Shown: one piece after another, positions 990 through 20,547 of the stretch | How the letters are laid out: each line of letters starts with the position of its first letter | Position numbering within the stretch: the first letter of the stretch is position 1 | NCBI GenBank assembly: GCA_030833665.1 | Contig: JAURGT010000001.1 | Coordinates: 1 to 64,000 of the forward strand | DNA: 64,000 nucleotides | Reading direction: 5' to 3' | Source: Miltoncostaeales bacterium | Lineage (GTDB): Bacteria; Actinomycetota; Thermoleophilia; Miltoncostaeales; Miltoncostaeaceae | Program-made: the position numbers and the translations under genes | The notes under the pieces: generated by a model | Told to the model about the DNA's origin: nothing | Seen by the model: the letters and a program-made list of their open reading frames with translations, nothing else | Databases searched by the model: none

Positions 990-2086
990 CGGAAGAGCTT
1001 CTCCCTCGGGTCGGCGCCGTCGAGCGCCGCGAAGGCCTCGAGGGCCTCCTTCTGCTCGTCGCTGAGCGATGACGGCACGGCGAGCCTGAGCTTCGCGAGG
1101 AGCGATCCGTTGCCTGATCCGTTGAGCTTGGGGGCGCCCTTGCCGGGAACCCGCAGCGTGCGGCCATCCTGGCTGCCCGCAGGCACGGTGATCTTCACCC
1201 GGCCGTCGAGCGTGGGCACCTCGATCTTCGCGCCAAGCGCCGCCTCGCTGAATGTGATGGGCACCTCCACCACGAGGTCGTCGCCCTTGCGGGTGAACAC
1301 CGGGCTCGGCATGACGCGCGTGATCACGTGCAGGTCGCCCGCCGGGCCACCGCGCATGCCGGCGCCGCCCTTGCCCTTGAGCTTGATGCGGGTGCCGTCC
1401 TTCGCTCCGGCCGGGATGCGCACGCGAATGCGCCGCTCGGCCGATCGCACGCCGGATCCGTGGCAGTCGGAGCAGGGGTCCTCGATGATGGTGCCGGCGC
1501 CGCCGCACTCGGGGCAGGTCTCGGGGATCGAGAAGCCGCCGATGTCGCGCCCCACCTGGCCGCGGCCATCGCAGGCAGTGCACAGGCGCGGGCTGGTGCC
1601 CGGCTTCGCGCCGGAGCCTGAGCACGTGGCGCAGGCCTCGGTCTTCTCGAGGGTCACCGGAACCTCGGCGCCGGCCATCGCCTGGTCGAACGACAGCGTC
1701 ACCTCCACCTCGAGGTCCTGGCCGCGCCGGGGCGCGGGCTCGCCGCGTCCACCACGGCGTCCGCCGCCGAACATCGACCCGAAGATGTCGCCGAGGTCGC
1801 CGAAGCCACCCGCCCCGGCGCCACCCGCGCCGCCGCCGTAGCCACCGCCGTAGCCGCCGCCCGTGCGGGCGAACTGGCGCTCGGCGTCGTACTCGCGGCG
1901 CTTCTCGGCGTCGGACAGCACGTCATGCGCGTGCGAGACCTCCTTGAACCGCTCCTCCGCGGATGCGTCATCCGGGTTGGCGTCGGGGTGGTACTTGCGC
2001 GCGAGTGCACGGTAGGCCTTCTTGATGGCCTCGTCGTCCGCGTCCTCGGTAACGCCGAGGACCGCATAGAGATCCTTGTCGTTCAG
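986..2086 (-). CDS. dnaJ: Chaperone DnaJ (type I, four CxxCxGxG zinc motifs)
   Basis: J domain [12 protein letters not shown]...YHPDANPDD and [32 protein letters not shown]; the only start that keeps the J domain is CTG at 2086-2084, overlapping the grpE TGA. Confidence 0.9.
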
Positions 2087-2664
2087 TGGGTGCCCCCTCC
2101 CTGGGACACCACCACGCGCGCGGGCCGGATCACCGCGTCGGACATCCGGTAGCCGCGCTCCACCACCGCCACGACCGTGCCCTCCGGGTGATCCGGAGAG
2201 GGCACGCCCTGGACGGCCTCATGCACGTTGGGGTCGAAGGCCTCCCCGTGGGCGGGGATCTCCTCCACCCCCCTGCCCACGAGCAGGGCGCCCAACTGCT
2301 GCTTGACCATGTCGACGCCCGCGACGATGCCCTGGGCACCCTCGTCGCCCGCGGCCACGAGGGCCTCGAGCGCGCGCTCAAGGTTGTCGAGCACGGGCAG
2401 GAGCTCGCCCACAAGATCGCGCACGCCGGCCTCGGCCAGCATCGGGCGCTCGCGCTCCACGCGCTTGCGGTAGTTGTCGAAGTCGGCCCGGGTGCGCTGC
2501 AGCTGGTCGAGGTACTCGTCCCGCTCGGCGCTCACCCGCGCCAGGTCGTCGCCGGCGCCAGATGGCGCCGGCTGGTCAGCGCCCTCGGGACCCGGGGCAC
2601 CCGCCTCCGTGGCGGGCACCTCGGGCTCCTCGGGAGCGACGTCGTTGTCGGTTCGATCGGTCAA
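2083..2664 (-). CDS. grpE: Nucleotide exchange factor GrpE
   Basis: [16 protein letters not shown]...[12 protein letters not shown]; between dnaK and dnaJ. Confidence 0.93.
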
Positions 2665-2674
2665 CGGGATTCCC

Positions 2675-4570
2675 CTAGGCCTTCTGGGCCGGCTCGTCCT
2701 CGTCGATCACCTCGTAGTCCGCGTCCTCCACCGTCTCCTCGCCGGAGTCGCCCGCGCCCTGCTGCTCGGCGGCAGCGCGCTGGTACACCTGCTCAGACAC
2801 CTTGTGGAGCGCCTGGGTGACCTTCTCGGTGGCGGCCTCGATGGACGCCGCGTCCTCACCCGACTGGCTGGCACGGGCCTCCTGGATCGCCGACTCGAGC
2901 TCCGCCTTCAGGGCCTCGTCGACCTTGTCGCCGTGGTCCTTGAGCTGGCGCTCGGCCTCGTTCACGCGGGCCTCGCTCTGGTTGCGGGCGTCGGCCAGCG
3001 CGCGCAGGCGCTTGTCGTCGTCGGCGTGCGACTCAGCCTCATCGACCATGCGCTTGACCTCGTCGTCACTCAGCCCGGACGAGCTCTTGATCTCGATCTT
3101 CTGCTCATTGCCGGTCCCCCGGTCCTTCGCGGACACGTGCACGATGCCGTTGGCGTCGATGTCGAACGTGACCTCGATCTGCGGAGTGCCGCTCGGCGCG
3201 GCCGGGATGCCGGTCAGGTTGAAGCGACCCAGCGTGCGATTGAACGACGCCATCTCGCGCTCGCCCTGCAGCACGTGGATCTCCACCTGACTCTGGTTGT
3301 CCTCAGCCGTCGAGAAGACCTCGCTCTTCTTGGTCGGGATCGTGGTGTTGCGCTCGATGAGGCGCGTGAACACGCCGCCCTTGGTCTCGATGCCCAGCGA
3401 CAGCGGGGTCACGTCGAGGAGCAGGACGTCCTTCACGTCGCCCGCGAGCACGCCGGCCTGGATGGCGGCGCCGACGGCCACCACCTCGTCCGGGTTCACG
3501 CCCTTGTGCGGGTCCTTGCCCGTCACCTCCTTCACGCGCTCCTGCACCGCGGGCATGCGGGTCATGCCGCCCACGAGCACCACGTGGTCGATGTCGGCAC
3601 CGGTCACGCCGGCGTCCTCGAGCGCCTGCTTCGTCGGCCCCTCGAGGCGCGTGAGCAGGTCGTGCGTGAGCTCCTCGAACTTGGCGCGGTTGAGCGACAG
3701 GTCGAGGTGCTTCGGGCCGGAGGCGTCCGCCGTGATGAACGGCAGGTTGATCTGCGCGCTCGTCGTGGTGGACAGCTCGATCTTCGCCTTCTCGGCCGCC
3801 TCGTAGAGGCGCTGGAGCGCCATGGCGTCCTGGCTCAGGTCGATGCCCTGGCTCGCCTTGAACTCGGCGACCATCCAGTCGACGACCGCCTTGTCGAAGT
3901 TGTCGCCGCCCAGGTGGTTGTCGCCGTTGGTCGACTTCACCTGGAACACGCCGTCGCCGATCTCGAGGATCGACACGTCGAACGTGCCGCCGCCCAGGTC
4001 GAAGACCAGGATCGTCTGCTCGTTCTCCTTGTCGAGCCCGTAGGCCAGCGCGGCCGCGGTGGGCTCGTTGATGATGCGCTTCACCTCGAGGCCGGCGATG
4101 GTGCCGGCATCCTTGGTGGCCTGGCGCTGGGCGTCGTTGAAGTACGCGGGCACGGTGATGACCGCGCCGTCGACCTCCTCGCCCAGGAACGCCTCGGCGT
4201 CCTGCTTGATCTTCTGCAGGATCATCGCGCTGATCTCCTGCGGCGACCACTCCTTGTCGCCCGCCTTCACGCGCACGTCACCGCTGGGGCCGGGGACGAC
4301 CTCGTACGGGACGATGGTCTGCTCCTCCGACACCTCGTTGGTGTCGCGCCCCATGAAGCGCTTGACGCTGAACACGGTGTTCTGCGGGTTGGTCACCGCC
4401 TGCCGGCGCGCGACGGCGCCCACAAGGCGCTCGCCCTGCGGGGTGAACGCGACGACCGACGGGGTCGTGCGACCGCCCTCCGCGTTGGGGATGACCTCGG
4501 GCTCGCCGCCCGTGAGCACGGCCATGGCCGAGTTGGTGGTTCCGAGATCGATGCCGATCGTCTTGCCCAT
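2675..4570 (-). CDS. dnaK: Molecular chaperone DnaK
   Basis: [38 protein letters not shown]..., complete Hsp70. Confidence 0.98.
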
Positions 4571-4652
4571 GAAAGAAATTGCCTCCTGATGCGTTGCGTG
4601 GAAATGGCCCGGTTCGTTCCGGGCCGGTCTGATCACGAGGGGTATCCAACAA

Positions 4653-4673
4653 CATGAGTCGTTCCATATCAAG
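4653..4673 (-). promoter_or_regulatory. HAIR-like operator (HspR-associated inverted repeat) upstream of dnaK
   Basis: Minus strand CTTGATA-N7-ACTCATG versus remembered consensus CTTGAGT-N7-ACTCAAG (11 of 14 half-site positions); ~80 bp upstream of dnaK; hspR in the same operon. Confidence 0.7.
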
Positions 4674-8646: not shown

Positions 8647-8698
8647 GTCGTCGGTGCCCGATATCCTCTCGCCCGCCGGCCTGCTGCCTGCCGCCCGC
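8647..8698 (+). pseudogene. Fragment duplicating the 3' end of the MetF-like gene
   Basis: 52-nt ungapped match to 7989-8040, about 44/52 identical by hand count; SSVPDILSPAGLLPAAR versus SSVPEILSRAGLVAAAR. Confidence 0.7.
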
Positions 8699-8851
8699 GA
8701 GGGCATCGGTCGTCGCGTAGCGACCCCGCAGCGTGACCACACCCGGCAGATTGTCTACGATTCACCGGCAGGTTCCCCCCGCCACCACGGCGGGATTCCC
8801 ACTTGGCGACATGCACATGCTGAGCGAAGTTCCCCTTACCGCGCTCCGTTC

Positions 8852-11800
8852 ATGACCGGCCCGCTCCGCCATCGACAAGCCGGCGCGGCCACGGCCCGCG
8901 TGCGGGCCATTGTCTCCCTGTTCGCGCTGGCAGCCCTGCTCATGATCGCCGCCTTGCGCCCCGCGGACGCGAGCGCCGCCATGGCGGTGAACACCCCCTC
9001 GGGGAACGGGCTCTCCGGGATCGTCTTCTACCTCTCGAAGAACAGTCCCGCGACCTACAACACCCAGTACGTGGCCGTGAAGGTCACCAACGATGCGTCG
9101 AGCCGGAGCGACATCTGGGTGAAGATCACGGACGTTTCGGGCGGCAACGTGACGCTGGCGACGAACGAGTCCGGCGAGCGACACATCGGCCCGATGGCGG
9201 CGAGCGCGGCGGGGACCGTGTACTTCCTGTTCAAGGCGAGCGCGAAGACGACCGCGGACACGACCTTCAACATCAAGCTGTACAACGGCGCGCCAAGCGC
9301 AGGTGGGTCCCTTATAAGCACGCATGCCGCAACGTTCACCGAGGTCGACGAATCGCAGAACGCGTCGGCCAACAAGGTGACGGGTGGCTACATCAGCCCC
9401 GCCGCGCCAACTCTGGGATCCGAGTTCAAGGTCGTGCTCACAGGCCTGACCGGGACCATCGCGAACAACGGGGTCCTGCTCTTCACCCCCGCATTCGGCG
9501 GCACGTGGGACCCATCCGCCTTCGAGCTCGTGAAGACCGATCTGAGCTTCGACTTCAACCCGTCGGGCAACCGTGCATTCACGAACGTCCTCCGCTTCAC
9601 GGCATCGAACAACGGGTCGAGCACGGCAGGGACACCGGACCTGAAGGAGGCAGGCGGCACCTACACGGCGACGTACACGTTCCGGGCCGTCAACGCCACC
9701 AACGCGTCGGTGAAGCCGACGCCCGTCGGCCACATCAAGAGCGGCGGGCTCATGAAGTACACGAACGCATCGTCGCTCTCGTCCATCTCGCCGATCCAGC
9801 CGGTGACGAACTCCTTCATCATCACAGCGGAGGCCTCGCCGACGCAGAGCCATGACGGCTCGATCACCTACGTGCTCACCCTCAGCAACACGAGCACCAA
9901 GGCCCTTTCCGTGGACCTGGTCAACGACACCCTGCCCGCAGGCGCCACGTACCAGGCGGGCTCCAGCAAGTACCAGGGCGCCGCTATCGCCGATCCCACC
10001 AACTCCGCTGGTGCTCTCACCTGGAGCGGCCCTTTCACGGTCGCAGGCGGCGCGCGGGCGACGCTCACGTACACGGTGGCTGCAACCCCCACCGCGACCG
10101 CGACCGACTACACCAATAGCGCCACCGCCATGGTCGGCACCACGGTCATCGACACCACTCTCAGCACCTCGGACAATGCCCCCGCCCAGGCGACGGCAAC
10201 CGTGGACAGCGACTTCGCGCCGGACACCACGCCACCGTCCATCACCCTCTCGGCGGTGGACGGCGCGAATGCCGCCCTCGCCCACAGTGGATCCACCGCG
10301 TCCACCGGTGCCACGATGACGTTCTCAACAGGCGAGAGCGCCACGTACACGTGCAGCCTCGACGGGGCCGCGCCAACCTCCTGCGCGTCCCCGAAGGCGT
10401 ACTCAGGTCTCGCGACAGGCGGTCACACGTTCTGGGTCTATGCGAAGGACGCCGCCGGGAACATCGGCAGCGCGAGCCTCAACTGGACGATCACGAACAC
10501 GTCCAAGCCTGAGGTGGCGAGTTTCGACCCCAAGGTCGTCGCATCGAACTCCAGCCCCCTCACCTACACCCTCACGTTCACCAAGGACATCGACCCCGCG
10601 AGCCTCACCACCGGCGACCTCAGCGTCGTCACCACCGGCTCCCCCGGCACCTGGACGATCAGCTCCGTCGTGGGGTCCGGGGCCACATACCTCGTGTCAT
10701 TGACCTCAGCCACCCCGGGCACCAGCGGAACCGTTGCCGTGGAGCTGGCCGCGAATGCCGTCATGGACGCTGCGGATGCCTCCCTCACCGGGCCCACCTC
10801 CGACGCGACATCGGGAACGACGTCAATGACCAACACGCTCGGCCTCGCGATCACCAGCGCAAGCCCAGCGTCGGGAGCCACGTCGAACTCCACGACGGCG
10901 ACGTTCTCGTTCGGCCCCGCTGCCGGGAAGTACCCACCGGACCAGTACATGTGCAAGGGCCCCGCTGAGGCCTCGTACAGCGAGTGCGTTTCACCGGTGA
11001 CGTACACGGGGGTCACCGCTGGCTCCAAAACCTTCTACGTGTACGGCAATACGCTGAATGACGACGGCACGGTGAACCTCACCACCAGCGCAAGCCCGGA
11101 GTCCACATCGTGGACCGTGGATCTCACGGCGCCCAGCGTGACCCTCACCACGCCTGCAGCGGCCGCGCTCCTCACTGACAGCACCCCGACGCTCTCCGGC
11201 GCCTGCACGACCGGCGACGGGACCGTCAGCGTCCCGATCTACTCCGGGGCCAGCGCCACCGGGACGCCCGTGCAGACCGCCTCGGCCTCCTGCTCGTCCG
11301 CCACGTGGTCGGTGGACGCCGCGTCCCTGGCCGATGGCGACTACACCGCGAAGGCACTCCAGACCGACGGCGCCGGCAACACGGGTGAGTCGGGGACGCG
11401 GACGTTCACCATCGACACCACCGCCCCCAGCGCCACCGTGACACCCAATGCCGCGAGCACATCCACGAATGCGGCAGCCTTCACGGTGACGTTCAACGAG
11501 TCCGTGAGCGGATTCGCATCCGGCGATCTGGTGGTCGCGGGAACGTCGGCATCGCCCGCCTGGACGGTGAGCAGCATCAGCGGGTCCGGGGCCAGCTACA
11601 CCGTGAACCTCGCGTCGTCGTCGACCCCATCACAGGGCACGCTCACACTGAAGGTCAGCGCGAACACGGTGACCGATGCCGCGGGCAACTCCGGCCCCGC
11701 TGCCGACAGCGCTGTCGGCAGCATGGACGTGGTCGCGAGCGGAGACCTGGTCGATGGCTCGGTCACGGCGAACAATGGGAATGCCTGGGGTGCCTCGAGA

Positions 11801-14515
11801 TCGGTGGGGGTTGCCAAGACGAACTTCAGCGTGTCCGGGGGCGGGAGCGCGACCAACGCCCTCTACCGCCTGGTGGCGTCGTGGAGCGCGGGGGCCTGCG
11901 GCACCTTCGATTCCGGCACGCAGATCGATCTCGGCACGACGTCCGATGACACATCCGCTCTCGGCGACAAGTGCTTCAAGTACGAACTCCGCGGCAACGG
12001 GAACTCGCGGAACGCCACGGCCGAGTCCAACGTCGTCAAGGTCGACCTCACGGCGCCGTCGGTCGGAGACCTGGCCGTTGGGGGCGGAGACGATCAGTTG
12101 ACGCAGAGTGCCGCGCCTGGGATCACAAAGGGCACCAAGTCGGATGCCGCGTCAGGCCTGAAGGCATCTGACGAGAAGCTGACGCGCGCATCGACGACCT
12201 TCACCAGCAACACGTGCGGGGCCTTCGCTGCCTACAACGCCGCCGCGGAGACCGACATCTCGCTCACGGCCACCGCTGACTCGGGCCTCACGAGCGGCTG
12301 CTACCGCTATACGCACCGGGTGGGCGATAACGCAGGGAACCAGACCACGAGACAGAGCACCGTGAAGGTGGACGTGGACACCCCCGCCGACGGCACCATG
12401 ACCGTCAACAGCGGTAACGCCTGGACCAATAGCCAGACCCCGTCACTCGGCGGCACCGCGTTCGCCGATGTCAACTCGGGCATCGCGGCGGGCGGTGCGT
12501 CGATCACGCGCGAGCGGGCCACGCTGAACGGCGCGACCTGCGAGAACGACTGGGCCGTGGACCAGGCGGCGGTGAACGACGCAGGCGGGGCCGAGAACGA
12601 CACCCTCGTGCAGTCGTGCTACCGGTACACGCGCCTGGCCACGGACCGCGCCGGAAACGCCGCCAGCGCCGGACCGGTCACCGTGAAGATCGACCGCACC
12701 AACCCCTCCGGCGGCACCGTGAGCGCCGCGGGCGGGTCGGAGTGGACCAAGGTCGCCAAGCCCGCGCTCTCAGGCAGCAGCTACGCCGATGCCAACTCGG
12801 GCGTCGCCATCTCGAGCCTCACGCGCGCGAGCGCCACGCTGAGCGGATCGACCTGCGGCACCTTCGGCAGCGAGGCGGCGGTCACCATCACCGCCGGTGC
12901 CGATGCCGATGCGCTCACCCAGAACTGCTACCGCTACACCCGGGCGGCAACGGACAACGCGGGCAACGCGACGTCCACCACCACGACGGTGAAGATCGAC
13001 CAGACCGACCCCACCGGTGGCGCGGTCACGGCCAACGGCGGGAACGCCACCTGGACCAAGGACGCCAAGCCCACGCTCAGCCGCTCGGCCTTCGCTGATG
13101 CCAACTCCGGGGTCGACAACGCCACCGACGCGTTCACCCGCGGGTTCGCGGCGTTCAACGGAAGCGGTAACTGCACCGGGGTGACCTACGCCGGCGCCAC
13201 GGCGGTGACCATCGACGGCGCAGGCCGCGATGCGGACGCCGGCACCCTTGCCGAGGGCTGCTACCGCTACCGCTCCACGGCGTCCGACAACGTCGGCAAC
13301 GCCGCCACCAACGACGCCACGGTGTTCATCGACCGCACTGCTCCCGTGGGCGGCGCGCTCAGCGCAGCCAAGACGAGCGGCCCCTGGGCCAACACGCCGA
13401 AGCCGGGGCTCTCGGGCGCGGCCTTCAGCGACGCCAACTCGGGCATCGACGGCTCAGCCTCGGTCACCCGCATCGTGCGCGAGCGCGCGCCGTACGTGTC
13501 GGGCACCGACACCTGCTCAGGCACATGGACGGTCGATGACTCCAACGTGACGATCTCGGGCGGCGAAGACACCGACACGCTCTCCGAGGCCTGCTACCGC
13601 TACTCCCGCGAGGCCGGTGACAATGCCGGCAACACCGCGGCCACCACGCCGGACACCGTCAAGCTCGACCTCACCCCCCCGTCCGGCGGTGCCGTGACCG
13701 CCAACGGCGGCACCGACATCGACATCGAGGCCGGCAACTCACCCGAGTTCGACGTGAATGCCTTCGCCGACCAGCGGTCAGGCCTGCGCGCAGGATCAGA
13801 GACGCTCACGCGCCGCATCGCACCGTGGCTCGGCTCGGTGGCGAGCGTGCAGACGCGTCCGGGTCGCGTTTCGACGCGGTCCGAGTTCGGCGACTACGGC
13901 AGTGCGCAGCCGGTGACGCTCATCGGCGCCGAGGACCCCGTGGCCGTGGACCCGGGTCGGTACTTCTACGAGCACACCGTGATCGACGTCTCGGGCAACG
14001 TCGCCACCACGACCGCGCTCGTGGAGATCCGCCCGCGTGGCTGGGTTCCGCCTGCCGTTCCCGTAGACACTCCGTCGGGATCGGGCGGTAGCGCCGCACC
14101 TGGCACCTCCGGGTCATCGCAGGCTGCGAGCGAGGCGCCCAAGCTCACCGCATCGATCGCCGTGACCAGGCGGCGTGTGCGTTCGGGCCGCGTGCTCCCG
14201 GCCACGATCCGGATCACGAACACGGGCGGGTCGGCTGGACCGGTCGTCGTATCGATCCGGCTCCGCGCCGGCATGGCCATCGCCGAGATGCCGCGCGGGG
14301 GCCGGCTCGAGGACGGCAGGTTACTGCTGCCGCTCGGCGGCCTCGCCGCCGGCACGTCGCATCAGGTGAAGGTGTTCCTGCGCCTCTCGAGCACGCGCAC
14401 GCGCACGATGCTCGTGAGGGGCGCCGTGCATCGCGCGGGCGCGGCCGACCTGGCTGCGATCTCGCCCAAGATCACCGTGGTGGTGCAGCGACGGCGGAGC
14501 GGACTTACCGGCTAG
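8852..14515 (+). CDS. Giant secreted repeat protein with Ig-like/DUF11-like regions and Cys-containing tandem modules
   Basis: Signal peptide ARVRAIVSLFALAALLMIAALRPADASA; ~7 tandem modules with WTxxxxPxLSGxxFADANSGI ... CYRYTRxATDNAGNxxxxxxTVKID; DUF11-like C-terminus. Confidence 0.85.
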   Translation: MTGPLRHRQAGAATARVRAIVSLFALAALLMIAALRPADASAAMAVNTPSGNGLSGIVFYLSKNSPATYNTQYVAVKVTNDASSRSDIWVKITDVSGGNVTLATNESGERHIGPMAASAAGTVYFLFKASAKTTADTTFNIKLYNGAPSAGGSLISTHAATFTEVDESQNASANKVTGGYISPAAPTLGSEFKVVLTGLTGTIANNGVLLFTPAFGGTWDPSAFELVKTDLSFDFNPSGNRAFTNVLRFTASNNGSSTAGTPDLKEAGGTYTATYTFRAVNATNASVKPTPVGHIKSGGLMKYTNASSLSSISPIQPVTNSFIITAEASPTQSHDGSITYVLTLSNTSTKALSVDLVNDTLPAGATYQAGSSKYQGAAIADPTNSAGALTWSGPFTVAGGARATLTYTVAATPTATATDYTNSATAMVGTTVIDTTLSTSDNAPAQATATVDSDFAPDTTPPSITLSAVDGANAALAHSGSTASTGATMTFSTGESATYTCSLDGAAPTSCASPKAYSGLATGGHTFWVYAKDAAGNIGSASLNWTITNTSKPEVASFDPKVVASNSSPLTYTLTFTKDIDPASLTTGDLSVVTTGSPGTWTISSVVGSGATYLVSLTSATPGTSGTVAVELAANAVMDAADASLTGPTSDATSGTTSMTNTLGLAITSASPASGATSNSTTATFSFGPAAGKYPPDQYMCKGPAEASYSECVSPVTYTGVTAGSKTFYVYGNTLNDDGTVNLTTSASPESTSWTVDLTAPSVTLTTPAAAALLTDSTPTLSGACTTGDGTVSVPIYSGASATGTPVQTASASCSSATWSVDAASLADGDYTAKALQTDGAGNTGESGTRTFTIDTTAPSATVTPNAASTSTNAAAFTVTFNESVSGFASGDLVVAGTSASPAWTVSSISGSGASYTVNLASSSTPSQGTLTLKVSANTVTDAAGNSGPAADSAVGSMDVVASGDLVDGSVTANNGNAWGASRSVGVAKTNFSVSGGGSATNALYRLVASWSAGACGTFDSGTQIDLGTTSDDTSALGDKCFKYELRGNGNSRNATAESNVVKVDLTAPSVGDLAVGGGDDQLTQSAAPGITKGTKSDAASGLKASDEKLTRASTTFTSNTCGAFAAYNAAAETDISLTATADSGLTSGCYRYTHRVGDNAGNQTTRQSTVKVDVDTPADGTMTVNSGNAWTNSQTPSLGGTAFADVNSGIAAGGASITRERATLNGATCENDWAVDQAAVNDAGGAENDTLVQSCYRYTRLATDRAGNAASAGPVTVKIDRTNPSGGTVSAAGGSEWTKVAKPALSGSSYADANSGVAISSLTRASATLSGSTCGTFGSEAAVTITAGADADALTQNCYRYTRAATDNAGNATSTTTTVKIDQTDPTGGAVTANGGNATWTKDAKPTLSRSAFADANSGVDNATDAFTRGFAAFNGSGNCTGVTYAGATAVTIDGAGRDADAGTLAEGCYRYRSTASDNVGNAATNDATVFIDRTAPVGGALSAAKTSGPWANTPKPGLSGAAFSDANSGIDGSASVTRIVRERAPYVSGTDTCSGTWTVDDSNVTISGGEDTDTLSEACYRYSREAGDNAGNTAATTPDTVKLDLTPPSGGAVTANGGTDIDIEAGNSPEFDVNAFADQRSGLRAGSETLTRRIAPWLGSVASVQTRPGRVSTRSEFGDYGSAQPVTLIGAEDPVAVDPGRYFYEHTVIDVSGNVATTTALVEIRPRGWVPPAVPVDTPSGSGGSAAPGTSGSSQAASEAPKLTASIAVTRRRVRSGRVLPATIRITNTGGSAGPVVVSIRLRAGMAIAEMPRGGRLEDGRLLLPLGGLAAGTSHQVKVFLRLSSTRTRTMLVRGAVHRAGAADLAAISPKITVVVQRRRSGLTG

Positions 14516-15355: not shown

Positions 15356-16158
15356 GGCAGCACGATCTCATGCTCGATCGCGCCGAGGCCGTCGATCTCG
15401 ACGCGCACGATGTCACCGGGCTGCAGGAACCGCATGGGGTCCATGCCCACGCCCACACCCTGCGGCGTGCCGGTGCTGATGACATCGCCTGGCTCCAGCG
15501 GGAACACGTGCGATGCGAACGACACCAGCTCGGCCACCGTGAAGATCATGTCCTCGGTCGAGGTGTCCTGGCGCAGTTCGCCGTTCACCCACGTGCGGAT
15601 GCGAAGGTCCTGCGGGTCGCCCACCTCGTCGGCCGAGGTGACCCACGGCCCCATCGGCATGAATCCCCACCCGCTCTTGGCGCGGATCCACTGCGGCTCC
15701 GATTTCTGGCGGTCGCGTGCGCTCACGTCGTCCACGGCCATGTACCCGAACACGTGCTCGAGGGCGCGATCAGGCGATACGCGGTGCGCCCGCGGGCCGA
15801 TCACCACGCCGAGCTCGCCCTCGTAGTCGAGGCGGCGCGTCCAGTCCGGGTGCACCACCGGCCCCGACGGCCGGTTCACCGCTCCGCGCATCTTCGCGAA
15901 CAGCACGGGCTCCTCCGGCGGCTGCTGGCCGGTCTCGGCCGCGTGCGCCCGGTAGTTCAACCCGATGCCGAAGGCGTTGCCCGGAATCACCGGCGCCTCG
16001 AGCACCACCTCAGCCATCGGGATCGGGTCGCCCGCCGCCACCGGTTCGTCTCCGCGGATGATGTCGAGCGCGTCATGCGCGGTCAGCGGCAGCACGCGGT
16101 CGCCCTCCACCAGTCCGGGCTGCCGGCGGGAATCCCGGCTGAACGAGCACAGTCGCAT
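15352..16158 (-). CDS. Fumarylacetoacetate hydrolase-family protein
   Basis: GLNYRAHAAETGQQPPEEPVLFAKMRGAVNRPSGPVVHP...LDYEGELGVVIG...GDVISTGTPQGVGVGM. Confidence 0.92.
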   Translation of the reverse strand: MRLCSFSRDSRRQPGLVEGDRVLPLTAHDALDIIRGDEPVAAGDPIPMAEVVLEAPVIPGNAFGIGLNYRAHAAETGQQPPEEPVLFAKMRGAVNRPSGPVVHPDWTRRLDYEGELGVVIGPRAHRVSPDRALEHVFGYMAVDDVSARDRQKSEPQWIRAKSGWGFMPMGPWVTSADEVGDPQDLRIRTWVNGELRQDTSTEDMIFTVAELVSFASHVFPLEPGDVISTGTPQGVGVGMDPMRFLQPGDIVRVEIDGLGAIEHEIVLP

Positions 16159-16885
16159 GTGCCGCTATCCTACGGACCTCTCGCCGGCCCTCGCGTGGCC
16201 GCCACCCGACCACGGAAGAGGCACCATCTCAACGCGCCCAGACGATCCCCGCTCCGACGGGAACCCTCGCGCGCGGCAGGCCGTCTCCGACGGGGTCCGC
16301 GGATTCGTCGCTCCCGTCGTCAGGTTCCTCGTGCGTGCCGGGGTCACCCCCAATGCCATCACGATCTTCGGATTCGTGCTCAGCGTCGGCACCGCGGTCC
16401 TGGCCGGGTTCCAGCTCTGGATCTGGGCGTTCGCGGTGGGATTCATCGGCGCCTTCAGCGACATGTTCGACGGCTCGGTGGCCCGCCTCAGCGGAAAGTC
16501 ATCGCGCTTCGGGGCGTTCCTCGACTCCAACCTCGACCGCCTCGGCGAAGGGCTCGTGATGGGCGGCATCGGCATCGCCATGGCCTACGACGGCCGCACC
16601 TATGCGGTTGCGATGACGATCCTCGCACTGACCGGCGGCTTCCTGGTGTCGTACACCCGGGCCCGCGCCGAGGGCCTGGGCATCGACTCCAACAAGGGCG
16701 GGCTCTTCAGCCGAACCGAGCGCCTGATCCTCATCGGGTTCGCGCTGCTCCTGGGCGGCTGGGGCATCACCATCGAGGTCGTCATGACCATCCTCGCCGT
16801 GGGGACTCTCGTCACCTTCGCCCAGCGCCTTTTCTACGTACACTCCGTGCTTCGGGACGCCGACGGGCCCCCGGACGCCAGGTAA
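16157..16885 (+). CDS. CDP-alcohol phosphatidyltransferase (PI synthase-like); true start uncertain, perhaps ATC at 16226
   Basis: [28 protein letters not shown] matches D-x2-DG-x2-AR-x8-G-x3-D-x3-D; next to ino1. Confidence 0.88.
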
Positions 16886-16907: not shown

Positions 16908-18002
16908 GTGAGCAAGTCGGTCAACGTGGCCATCATCGGCGTGGGCAACTGCGCCTCATCGTTCGTGCAGGGCGTGCAGTACTACAAGGACGCCGGCAAG
17001 GACGACTTCGTCCCGGGCCTCATGCACTCGGTGCTGGGCGGCTACCACGTGAAGGACATCAACTTCGTGGCCGCCATCGACATCGACGCCAACAAGGTGG
17101 GCCTCGACCTGGCCGATGCCATCTTCACCGAGCCCAACAACACGGTCAAGTTCTCGGACGTCCCCGAGACGGGCGTGCATGTGTCGCGTGGCATGACCCA
17201 CGACGGCCTGGGCAAGTACCTCTCGGAGATCATCGAGAAGGCCCCCGGCGAGACCGCCGACATCACCGGGCTGCTCAAGAGCACCAAGACCGACGTGGTG
17301 GTGTCGTACCTGCCGGTGGGATCCGAGCAGGCGACGAAGTGGTACGTCGAGCACATCCTCGCCGCCGGCTGCGGCTTCGTGAACTGCGTGCCTGTCTTCA
17401 TCGGGCGCGAGCACTACTGGCAGGAGCGCTTCCGCGAGGCCGGCGCGCCCATCGTGGGCGACGACATCAAGAGCCAGGTGGGCGCCACCATCGTGCACCG
17501 CCAGCTCACGCGCCTCATGCGCGAGCGCGGCGTCCGCCTGAAGCACACCACGCAACTCAACTTCGGCGGCAACACCGACTTCCTCAACATGCTCGAGCGC
17601 GAGCGCCTCGAGAGCAAGAAGATCAGCAAGACCAACGCGGTCACGTCGATGCTCGACTACGAGATGGACCCGAAGGACATCCACATCGGGCCCAGCGACT
17701 ACGTGCCGTGGCTCACCGACCGGAAGTGGGCGCACATCCGCCTCGAGGGCCAGGCCTTCGGCGACGTGCCGCTCAACATCGAGCTCAAGCTCGAGGTGTG
17801 GGACTCACCCAACTCGGCCGGCGTGGTCATCGACGCCGTCCGCTGCTGCAAGGTGGCCATGGACCGCGGCATCTCGGGCACGCTCGAGGGCCCGTCGTCG
17901 TACTTCATGAAGAGCCCGCCGATCCAGCATCCGGACGACGTCGCGCGCGAGATGACCGAGGAATTCATCAGCGGCGAGAGCGACGCCGCCCTGCCGAGGT
18001 AG
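16908..18002 (+). CDS. ino1: myo-inositol-1-phosphate synthase
   Basis: [24 protein letters not shown]...[12 protein letters not shown]...[34 protein letters not shown]. Confidence 0.95.
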
Positions 18003-18015
18003 GCACGGAGCCGCG

Positions 18016-19833
18016 GTGAGCGACTCACCGCTCAGGATCGCGCTGGTGTCGCCCCACGCGTTCCCCCCGGGGGACGACGTGGGGCACGCCGTGGCGGCGG
18101 AGGCCGATGCCCTCGCCCGCCGCGGCCATGCGGTGACCATCCTCGCCCCGGGCAAGGTGCGTGCTGCGGCGGACGCCGGACGCAGGCGCATCGAGGCGCT
18201 CGAGTCCGGGGACGGCGACGCCGTGGCAGCCGAGCCCGGCGGACCGCCGTTGCTGGTGGCCACCTCGCGGGCCATCCGCAAGAGCACGAAGGGCACCGGG
18301 CGCCGCCTCGGCGGGCCGATCGATTCGGCCTCGGGCCTGGAGATCGCGCTCGGGCTCGGGGGCTTCGACGTGGCGCATCTGCACGAGCCCCTGGCGCCGT
18401 CGCCCGCGCTCGCCGCCCTGCGCCACGCAACCGGCGTCCGCGCCGTCACCTTCCACCGGACCGCGCCCCTCGCCGGGGTGGCCTTCGTGCGCCCGCTCGT
18501 GGACCGGGCCCTGGCCCAGGCCGACCTGCGCATTGCGCTCTCCCCCGCGGCGCGCCACGTGCTCGCAGGCGTGCTGCCCGGCGCGTACGAGGTTGTGCCC
18601 GAAGGCCTCGACGCCTCGATGTTCGGGCCGCCCGCCGAGGACCCGGGCATCGTTGTGGTGGCCCGCGACCGCGACCGCACCGGGCTCCGGTTCGTGCTGC
18701 GCGCGCTGATCGGCACCGACCCGCTCCTGACCGGGCCCATCACGATCATCGGGCCGCCCGATGCTCCCCAGCGCACGCGGGCCGCGGTGCCGAAGGCACT
18801 GCGCGACCGCGTGACCGTGGTGCCCGACGCCGGGGCCGCCACGCGCGCCGATGCCCTGCGTACCGGGCGCATCGCGCTCTTTCCCACCGACGAGGAGGCC
18901 AGCAGCCCCGTGCTGCGCGAAGCCATGGCCACGGGCATGTGCGTGCTGGCGTCCCGCTGTCCCCACGCTGACGACGCGCTCGGAACCGATGCCGGCATCA
19001 CGCTCCCGCCCTTCAACGCCGAGGCCTGGGCCGACGCCGTGGCCTCGTGCCTGGCCAATCCGGCACGCGTGGCGATGTTCGGGGCTGCAGCGGAGGCGAG
19101 CAGCCGCGCGCGCACATGGGATGACGTGGCCGCCGAACTCGAGGGCCTCTACCGCGGGGTGGTTGCGCGCCCGGCCGACGAGGCCGGCGGCACCACCGAG
19201 CCGCCGGTGTTCGCCGACCTGCGCGTGCGCACCGGTCCCGGCCTCGGGCCGCGCGAGATCGTCGCCACCGCCGTGGAGCGCGACATCCGGGTGGTGGCCG
19301 TGGCCGCGCCCGGCGGCATCGAGCCCGCCCTCGAGGTACACCGCGCGGCACCCGACCGCGTGCGGGTGATCGTGGGCCAGGAGATCGACACCCGCGAGGG
19401 CGTGATCGTGGGCCTGTTCCTCACGCAGTCAGTGCCCGACGGCCTCGCGCTCGACGACGCCCTCCGGCGGGTGCGTGACCAGGGAGGGCTCACGGTGATT
19501 CCCCATCCCGATTCAGCCATCGCCCCGCCCGCGGAGTCGCTGCGGGCAGTGCACGACCTCATCGACTGCCACGAGGGACTCACGCCGGCCCGGCCCGCCG
19601 CGCAGGCCACCGATGCCGCGCTGCTGCTGCAGCGCGCGGGCCTGGTGGTGACCGCCGGCAGCGCCGCCGCGGTGCCCGCCGAGATGGGAACGGCCGGAAT
19701 GCTCATGCGCCCCTTCGCCGGTCCCGAGGAGTTCCTCGCCGCCCTCGGGGATGCCCGCCCCGTGCGCAGGCGCCGCGGTCTTCGCGGGCGGAGCGCGCGT
19801 TCCTCGCGCCGCGCGTCGCAGCAGGACGCCTAG
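18016..19833 (+). CDS. GT4-type glycosyltransferase fused to a degenerate PHP-like domain
   Basis: N-half GT-B features (LVSPHAFPPGDDVGHAVAAEADALARRGHAVTILAP; FPTDEEASSPVLREAMATGMCVLASRC); C-half FADLRVRTGPGLGPREIVATAVERDIRVVAVA...GQEIDTREGVIVGLFL...GGLTVIPHP. Confidence 0.75.
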   Translation: MSDSPLRIALVSPHAFPPGDDVGHAVAAEADALARRGHAVTILAPGKVRAAADAGRRRIEALESGDGDAVAAEPGGPPLLVATSRAIRKSTKGTGRRLGGPIDSASGLEIALGLGGFDVAHLHEPLAPSPALAALRHATGVRAVTFHRTAPLAGVAFVRPLVDRALAQADLRIALSPAARHVLAGVLPGAYEVVPEGLDASMFGPPAEDPGIVVVARDRDRTGLRFVLRALIGTDPLLTGPITIIGPPDAPQRTRAAVPKALRDRVTVVPDAGAATRADALRTGRIALFPTDEEASSPVLREAMATGMCVLASRCPHADDALGTDAGITLPPFNAEAWADAVASCLANPARVAMFGAAAEASSRARTWDDVAAELEGLYRGVVARPADEAGGTTEPPVFADLRVRTGPGLGPREIVATAVERDIRVVAVAAPGGIEPALEVHRAAPDRVRVIVGQEIDTREGVIVGLFLTQSVPDGLALDDALRRVRDQGGLTVIPHPDSAIAPPAESLRAVHDLIDCHEGLTPARPAAQATDAALLLQRAGLVVTAGSAAAVPAEMGTAGMLMRPFAGPEEFLAALGDARPVRRRRGLRGRSARSSRRASQQDA

Positions 19834-19899: not shown

Positions 19900-20547
19900 A
19901 TGAGTTCCGAGTCACCCGCCACCCCAGAGCCTGCTCCCGATGAGGGACGGTCCGTCCCGCGCATCGAGGATGCCTACCTCGACCGGGCGATCCGCGAGAT
20001 GCACCTCCTCGAGGAGCGAATGGACGGCTGCACGGGCTGCGCCGCAGCGGGCACCTTCCCGGTGAAGGCCTCCGGGTCGCCCACCGCGGACATCATGCTC
20101 ATCAAGTGGCAGTCATCGCTCTCGGAGCGCCAGGAGGGCGTGTCGTTCTACGGCCGCCCCGGCGAGGCCGTGCGTCGCAGCGTTGAGCGCCTGCAGGTGG
20201 ACCCCTCCGCCCTCTACGGCACCCTCGTGCTCAAGTGCCCGCACGCCGACCCGTCGGCACCCATGGGCGATGAGCTCGAATGGCTCGCCGAGGAGATCCG
20301 CATAGTGCGTCCGCGGCTCATCGTGGTGATGGGCGACCGCTCCATCGGCGCCATGGATGCCCTCAAGTTCCCCATGGCCGAGCCGCTGCCCGTGGAGCAG
20401 GGCGTGGTCACCCGCTGGACGCCGTCGATCGAGGCCCTCGTGACGCCCGACATCGACGACTCGCTCGACGAGCAGGACGCCAAGCGCCGGTTCTGGGCCG
20501 CCTTCCGCGCCCTCGGCGACTGGTACGCCGCCGAGCCCCCCTGGTAG
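19900..20547 (+). CDS. Uracil-DNA glycosylase superfamily-like protein (divergent)
   Basis: CTGCAAAGTFPV...ADIMLIKWQSS...GVSFYGRPGEAVRR...LVLKCPHADPS...RPRLIVVMGD: family-4 UDG-like fold order without canonical catalytic motifs. Confidence 0.6.
   Translation: MSSESPATPEPAPDEGRSVPRIEDAYLDRAIREMHLLEERMDGCTGCAAAGTFPVKASGSPTADIMLIKWQSSLSERQEGVSFYGRPGEAVRRSVERLQVDPSALYGTLVLKCPHADPSAPMGDELEWLAEEIRIVRPRLIVVMGDRSIGAMDALKFPMAEPLPVEQGVVTRWTPSIEALVTPDIDDSLDEQDAKRRFWAAFRALGDWYAAEPPW

What the first reader, a model, noticed from the sequence alone, without database searches (positions are those of the whole stretch)
18016..19833. GT4-type glycosyltransferase fused to a PHP-like domain that has lost metal ligands
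The C-terminal half aligns by motif order to PHP (DLHxH..., TDH, GxE, HP) but reads DLRVRT instead of DLHVHT and AVAAP instead of the TDH motif, while GQEIDTREG and IPHP are kept. This looks like a pseudoenzyme fused to a transferase, directly after PI synthase-like and ino1 genes, suggesting an inositol-lipid glycosylation step with a binding or regulatory domain.
Basis: partly seen in the sequence, partly recalled or inferred. Interest (0 to 1): 0.6.

Follow-up and report, generated by a model that had tools for sequence, protein, structure and literature searches.

The report
Glycosyltransferase fused to dead phosphatase domain
This actinobacterium carries a sugar-transfer enzyme joined to a phosphatase-fold domain whose metal-binding site has been lost but whose fold is still preserved by selection; sister families keep the phosphatase site intact beside inositol-lipid genes, which makes the gene a testable candidate for a phosphatase long missing from actinobacterial inositol-lipid synthesis.

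Summary
Confirmed and extended. The 605-aa ORF at 18016-19833 is a PimA-like GT4 glycosyltransferase fused to a PHP-fold domain that has no metal centre, just after a phosphatidylinositol-phosphate (PIP) synthase and ino1. The C-terminal half hits no Pfam PHP model, but profile comparison (E 5e-41) and AlphaFold2 (pLDDT 92.9; all 12 PDB matches at E<0.001 are PHP-type proteins) show the fold. The fusion is conserved at this locus across the class Thermoleophilia. Outside the window's family (Miltoncostaeaceae) all 87 non-redundant homologues keep the PHP ligand histidines. Inside it none of 33 does: HxH became RxR, TDH became AAP or similar, GSDxH was lost; Glu456, His497 and Glu520 mostly persist. 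The loss happened once. In the genus the dead half is under purifying selection like the GT half (dN/dS 0.19 vs 0.16). Two family members lack the PHP half, two more lack the gene. Several sister families show the reverse: PHP intact, GT EX7E lost. Most likely the dead domain is a structural or ligand-binding module, as in E. coli Pol III alpha. That the intact version is the unidentified actinobacterial PIP phosphatase is a bolder, testable reading.

The parts
18016..19833 (+). GT4-PHP fusion gene, 605 aa, GTG start
   Evidence: orthologues in 59 of 61 related genomes
18028..19170 (+). PimA-like GT4 domain, about aa 5-385
   Evidence: Pfam GT4 domains; PimA 3e-14; PimA is the top fold match
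18454..18456 (+). His147, equivalent of PimA H118
   Evidence: alignment; role of the residue from PMC9883506
18664..18681 (+). Donor-phosphate loop: R217 (PimA R196) kept, T222 in place of PimA K202
18895..18921 (+). EX7E motif, E294 and E302 (PimA E274, E282), kept
19192..19800 (+). PHP-fold domain without metal centre, about aa 393-595
   Evidence: hhalign E 5.4e-41 to intact PHP halves; AF2 pLDDT 92.9; Foldseek to PHP proteins
19216..19233 (+). DLRVRT, aa 401-406, in place of DLHxHT
19303..19311 (+). AAP, aa 430-432, in place of TDH
19381..19383 (+). Glu456, retained ligand position (GxE)
19504..19506 (+). His497, retained ligand position (HP)
19573..19575 (+). Glu520, position of the conserved Glu of intact homologues, retained
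19657..19671 (+). GSAAA, aa 548-552, in place of GSDxH
16250..16885 (+). PIP synthase-like CDP-alcohol phosphotransferase (ORF begins at 15965; true start not determined)
   Evidence: Pfam PF01066; RsPIPS and MtPgsA1 hits; NCBIfam PIPSynth 8.6e-40, below its cut-off
16908..18002 (+). ino1, inositol-3-phosphate synthase
   Evidence: Pfam PF01658; TIGR03450 7e-162, below its cut-off
19900..20547 (+). Uracil-DNA glycosylase superfamily gene, conserved downstream neighbour
   Evidence: synteny

Best explanation
The gene is the local form of a class-wide (Thermoleophilia) fusion of a PimA-like GT4 glycosyltransferase with a PHP phosphoesterase domain, encoded at the PIP synthase-ino1 locus. On the stem of the window's family (Miltoncostaeaceae) the PHP domain lost its metal centre once; it is now a non-catalytic module that selection holds in most members and that a few have discarded. 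Shown: homology, fold, ligand loss, single origin, purifying selection, synteny. Inferred: the dead domain works as the dead PHP domain of E. coli Pol III alpha does, packing against and stabilising its partner, perhaps with an anion-binding or salt-bridged pocket (two Arg in place of the HxH pair beside retained Glu456, His497 and Glu520). Also inferred: the GT half glycosylates an inositol lipid made by the neighbouring genes. The pseudo-PHP part alone I hold at about 0.93; the stated confidence is for the whole, functional part included.
For: Profile and fold match to PHP. 0 of 33 family sequences but 87 of 87 others keep the ligand His residues. Family monophyletic, outgroup PHPs all intact, so one loss. 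dN/dS of the dead half 0.11-0.19 in the genus, equal to the GT half. Arg at both HxH positions in 31 and 32 of 33 family sequences. Synteny PIPS-ino1-fusion-UDG. GT half closest to PimA and keeps H118, R196, E274, E282 equivalents. Precedent: PMC3666897.
Against: PimA K202 is Thr here, and the matching Lys-to-Ala change inactivates the related ManT, so the GT half may be weak or dead. No substrate, binding or stability data. Two family members do without the PHP half and two without the gene, so its role is not essential throughout the family. AF2 alignments include intact PHP sequences.
Confidence: 0.55

Rival explanations
1. The intact fused PHP of the sister families is the missing actinobacterial PIP phosphatase (PIP to PI), with the PimA-like half as lipid-binding scaffold or next enzyme; the Miltoncostaeaceae form is a derived relic whose phosphatase role was taken over by another enzyme.
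For: PIPS within 4.5 kb upstream in 56/62 and ino1 in 55/62 sister-family loci. Neighbouring PIPS has the two inositol-phosphate-binding Arg positions by spacing. All PHP ligands intact and PHP half the slower-evolving half. The phosphatase was described as unidentified (PMC4634129, PMC6506517). No PgpA-type enzyme in 61 genomes.
Against: Family genomes keep PIPS and ino1 with the PHP dead or the gene missing. Standalone orthologues in other classes are not at PIPS/ino1 loci; their genomes have ino1 in 13/14 cases, but about two thirds of the other genomes have it too. Nearest characterised PHPs act on nucleotides or RNA.
Confidence: 0.3
2. The pseudo-PHP site became an Arg-lined sensor that binds inositol phosphate, PIP or another anion and regulates the GT half.
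For: Both HxH His are Arg in 31 and 32 of 33 family sequences, with Glu456, His497 and Glu520 kept; purifying selection.
Against: The Arg may simply pair with the retained Glu residues as a metal substitute; no ligand data; two subclade sequences (L071, L072) keep the first His.
Confidence: 0.2
3. The C-terminal half is a decaying relic with no function.
For: Ligands lost; PHP half absent in L053 and L054; gene missing from the locus in G027 and G029.
Against: Open frames through the genus, dN/dS 0.11-0.19 in this half, near-invariant new residues.
Confidence: 0.07
4. The fusion is an MshA-MshA2 enzyme of mycothiol synthesis (GlcNAc transfer to inositol phosphate, then dephosphorylation).
For: GT4 plus phosphatase next to ino1; weak similarity to MshA.
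Against: GT half is far closer to PimA (5e-43 vs 9e-17 for L032); MshC above its cut-off in 0 of 61 genomes.
Confidence: 0.03

Closest known systems
Degenerate PHP domain of E. coli DNA polymerase III alpha (Barros et al. 2013, PMC3666897)
   Same: PHP fold kept after losing metal ligands, inside a multi-domain enzyme whose relatives have the intact site; loss goes with another enzyme doing the job
   Different: Partner is a GT4 glycosyltransferase, not a polymerase; more ligands are lost here, with Arg at both HxH positions; the partner's own activity is unproven
PimA, phosphatidylinositol mannosyltransferase (PDB 2gej, 4n9w)
   Same: Best sequence and fold match of the GT half; H118, R196, E274, E282 equivalents present; gene next to PIP synthase
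   Different: PimA has no PHP domain; Lys202 is Thr here
PHP phosphoesterases BAD_1165 (3e0f/3o0f), RNase AM (7ug9, 9etk), 2yb1 nucleotide phosphatase, TM0559 (2anu)
   Same: Fold, and in the sister-family homologues all ligand positions
   Different: Standalone enzymes; in the window protein the HxH, TDH and GSDxH ligands are gone
Bacteroides PIP phosphatase BT_1525 (PMC9246714)
   Same: Performs the pathway step proposed for the intact fusion, encoded in an inositol-lipid gene cluster
   Different: PgpA family, unrelated to PHP; PgpA was not found in 61 Thermoleophilia genomes

Membership tests
PHP fold superfamily | Overall homology and fold | tested here: met
   hhalign probability 100, E 5.4e-41 to intact PHP halves; Foldseek hits to PHP proteins only below 1e-3
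Catalytic PHP phosphoesterase | HxH, TDH and GSDxH metal ligands | tested here: not met
   RxR, AAP and GSAAA in the window protein; absent in all 33 family sequences
Catalytic PHP phosphoesterase | Bound metals and phosphatase activity | not testable with these tools
   needs purified protein
GT4 / PimA | GT-B fold and closest relative PimA | tested here: met
GT4 / PimA | Donor-site residues H118, R196, K202, E274, E282 | tested here: inconclusive
   four kept; K202 is Thr222 (residues)
GT4 / PimA | Mannosyl transfer from GDP-mannose to PI | not testable with these tools
   needs an assay
PIP phosphatase (intact homologues only) | Encoded beside PIP synthase | tested here: met
   56/62 sister-family loci
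PIP phosphatase (intact homologues only) | Hydrolyses PIP | not testable with these tools
   needs an assay
Mycothiol MshA/MshA2 | MshC in the genome | tested here: not met
   0/61 above the curated cut-off

The most novel reading that the evidence does not exclude
The class-wide PimA-like/PHP fusion is a see-saw enzyme. Its intact PHP half is the unidentified PIP phosphatase of this actinobacterial class, with the GT half reduced to a lipid-binding scaffold in several families; in Miltoncostaeaceae the reverse happened, the PHP site turning into an Arg-lined inositol-phosphate-binding pocket while the GT stayed closer to catalytic.
Probability: 0.2. Interest if true: 0.8.

Novelty: new variant of a known kind. 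Interest (0 to 1): 0.58.

Why it matters
The actinobacterial phosphatase that turns PIP into PI, the precursor of phosphatidylinositol mannosides, was reported as unidentified (PMC4634129, PMC6506517). A phosphatase-fold domain fused to a PimA-like enzyme at the PIP synthase-ino1 locus of a whole bacterial class is a concrete candidate, and the window's family offers natural site-dead, domain-less and gene-less versions for the test. It is also a clean further case, after DNA polymerase III, of a PHP domain kept after losing its metals, with opposite decay of the two active sites of one fused protein in sister lineages.

Tried and rejected
Mycothiol route (MshA-MshA2): rejected on PimA versus MshA scores and absence of MshC. 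PgpA-type PIP phosphatase as replacement: none in 61 genomes. Inositol monophosphatase as replacement: found in 59/61 genomes, strong in the family but also in three sister families with intact PHP, so uninformative. Context of standalone PHP orthologues in other actinobacterial classes: no link to ino1 or PIPS. Viral contigs: no homologue. dN/dS outside the genus rests on near-saturated dS and is used only to compare dN. A first ligand table had a three-residue offset and was replaced. The equivalence of PimA R196 in sister families depends on the alignment, because the loop is a residue shorter; the claim of GT decay there rests on loss of EX7E. Papers on Thermoleophilia inositol mannosides or Miltoncostaea lipids: none held.

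Full report
Observation. The ORF at 18016-19833 (+) encodes 605 aa. Pfam finds only GT4 domains in the window protein; PHP and PHP_C are found in the intact homologues.

Fold of the C-terminal half. A profile of the family's C-terminal halves against a profile of intact PHP halves gives probability 100% and E 5.4e-41 over 194 columns. AlphaFold2 gives pLDDT 87.5 for the whole protein and 92.9, pTM 0.90, for the half alone. All 12 PDB matches of the half below 1e-3 are PHP-type proteins (RNase AM, TM0559, BAD_1165, 2yb1, PsfC; PsfC is called PHP-type from my own knowledge). The AF2 alignments include intact homologues, so the models show agreement with the fold rather than wholly independent proof.

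Ligand loss. Homologues are present in 59 of 61 related genomes, and at least 581 stretches of a bacterial genome collection encode relatives; among the 80 kept, the records named below phylum level are mostly Thermoleophilia. Over 125 non-redundant sequences, both HxH His, the TDH His, the GxE Glu, the HP His and the later Glu are present in 87/87 sequences outside the window's family (82 fusions and 5 standalone PHPs), and GSDxH in all 85 with data. Inside the family none of 33 with data is intact: the first His is Arg in 31 and His in 2; the second is Arg in 32 and Cys in 1; the TDH His is Pro in 32 of 34; the GSDxH Asp is never Asp. Glu456, His497 and Glu520 persist in nearly all. A four-residue deletion also removes the SxD of the first motif. 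The 'family' is group f1 of the genome tool. The contig of one member (G023, 4974 bases) equals in length the record titled Miltoncostaeaceae (L076), so the name is an inference.

History. The family is one clade, 100/100 in the full-length tree and 100/99 in the PHP tree, on a long stem; all 15 standalone PHPs from other actinobacterial groups keep the ligands, so the change is most simply a single loss. L053 (from a one-contig genome) and L054 carry the GT without a PHP half. In G029 and G027 PIPS, ino1 and UDG are there but the fusion gene is not at the locus; G029 has about 115 bases between the ino1 and UDG frames, and G027 has an unrelated ORF between them.

Selection. Within the genus median dN/dS is 0.159 for the GT half and 0.193 for the PHP half; among close relatives 0.120 and 0.106. 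The dead half is maintained, not drifting.

The other half. The GT half is PimA-like: 3e-14 for the window protein, 5e-43 for L032 against 9e-17 for MshA, with PimA the top fold match. From PMC9883506 and PMC4506291 the donor-site residues of PimA are G16, H118, R196, K202, E274 and E282. The window protein has H147, R217, E294 and E302, but T222 for K202. In several sister families with intact PHP the EX7E motif is lost (f3, f5, f6, f7, f8), while f2 and f4 keep it. The two active sites have thus decayed in opposite directions in different lineages. Whether any of these GT halves is active is not known.

Locus. PIPS lies within 4.5 kb upstream on the same strand in 12/12 family and 56/62 sister-family loci with enough flank, ino1 in 8/12 and 55/62, UDG within 1.5 kb downstream in 29/29 and 36/73. 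The PIPS hits RsPIPS and MtPgsA1. By spacing along that alignment its SRTER and AQR arginines match R153/R191 of RsPIPS (R155/R195 of the M. tuberculosis enzyme), proposed to bind inositol phosphate; this mapping is my inference. It matches the NCBIfam PIP synthase model at 8.6e-40 but below the curated cut-off, so its exact substrate is not proven.

Interpretation. The closest described case is E. coli Pol III alpha, whose PHP domain lost metal ligands, kept its fold and stabilises the enzyme, in lineages with a separate exonuclease (PMC3666897). By analogy the window's domain is most likely a non-catalytic structural or ligand-binding module. The near-invariant Arg pair could neutralise the retained Glu residues or bind a phosphate; this is inference. 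The wider hypothesis is that the intact domain is the PIP phosphatase described as unidentified (PMC4634129, PMC6506517). It is favoured by synteny, by the strong conservation of the PHP half and by the absence of the PgpA-type enzyme. It is weakened by family members that keep PIPS with a dead or missing gene, by unlinked standalone orthologues and by only weak co-occurrence with ino1.

Noticed in passing
window 8654-14515 (+): A 1953-aa ORF with many repeated Ser/Thr/Ala/Gly-rich segments of the 'DxTxPS/GG' type, looking like a large repetitive surface or secreted protein; not analysed.
   Followed up: no
L047 (G038): about 1467-3219 and 4028-4658: A second, partial ino1 copy (C-terminal part, 210-codon frame) lies between the complete ino1 and the fusion gene in this sister-family genome.
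   Followed up: no
L176 and L177 (G029, G027): Two family genomes have PIPS, ino1 and UDG but no fusion gene at the locus; in G029 ino1 and UDG frames are about 115 bases apart.
   Followed up: partly
L154-L168: Close standalone orthologues of the intact PHP domain occur in other actinobacterial families, in varied gene contexts (TldD/PmbA, pirin, LytR-CpsA-Psr neighbours), often with further paralogues in the same genome; function unknown.
   Followed up: partly
L038:3156-4046: In one sister-family genome a frame that looks like a PAP2-type membrane phosphatase sits directly before PIPS; judged by eye only, another possible lipid phosphatase at the locus.
   Followed up: no
G011/L063 and similar: Several public MAG records of this lineage bear titles of other taxa (Bifidobacterium breve, Acidobacteria), apparently misnamed.
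   Followed up: no
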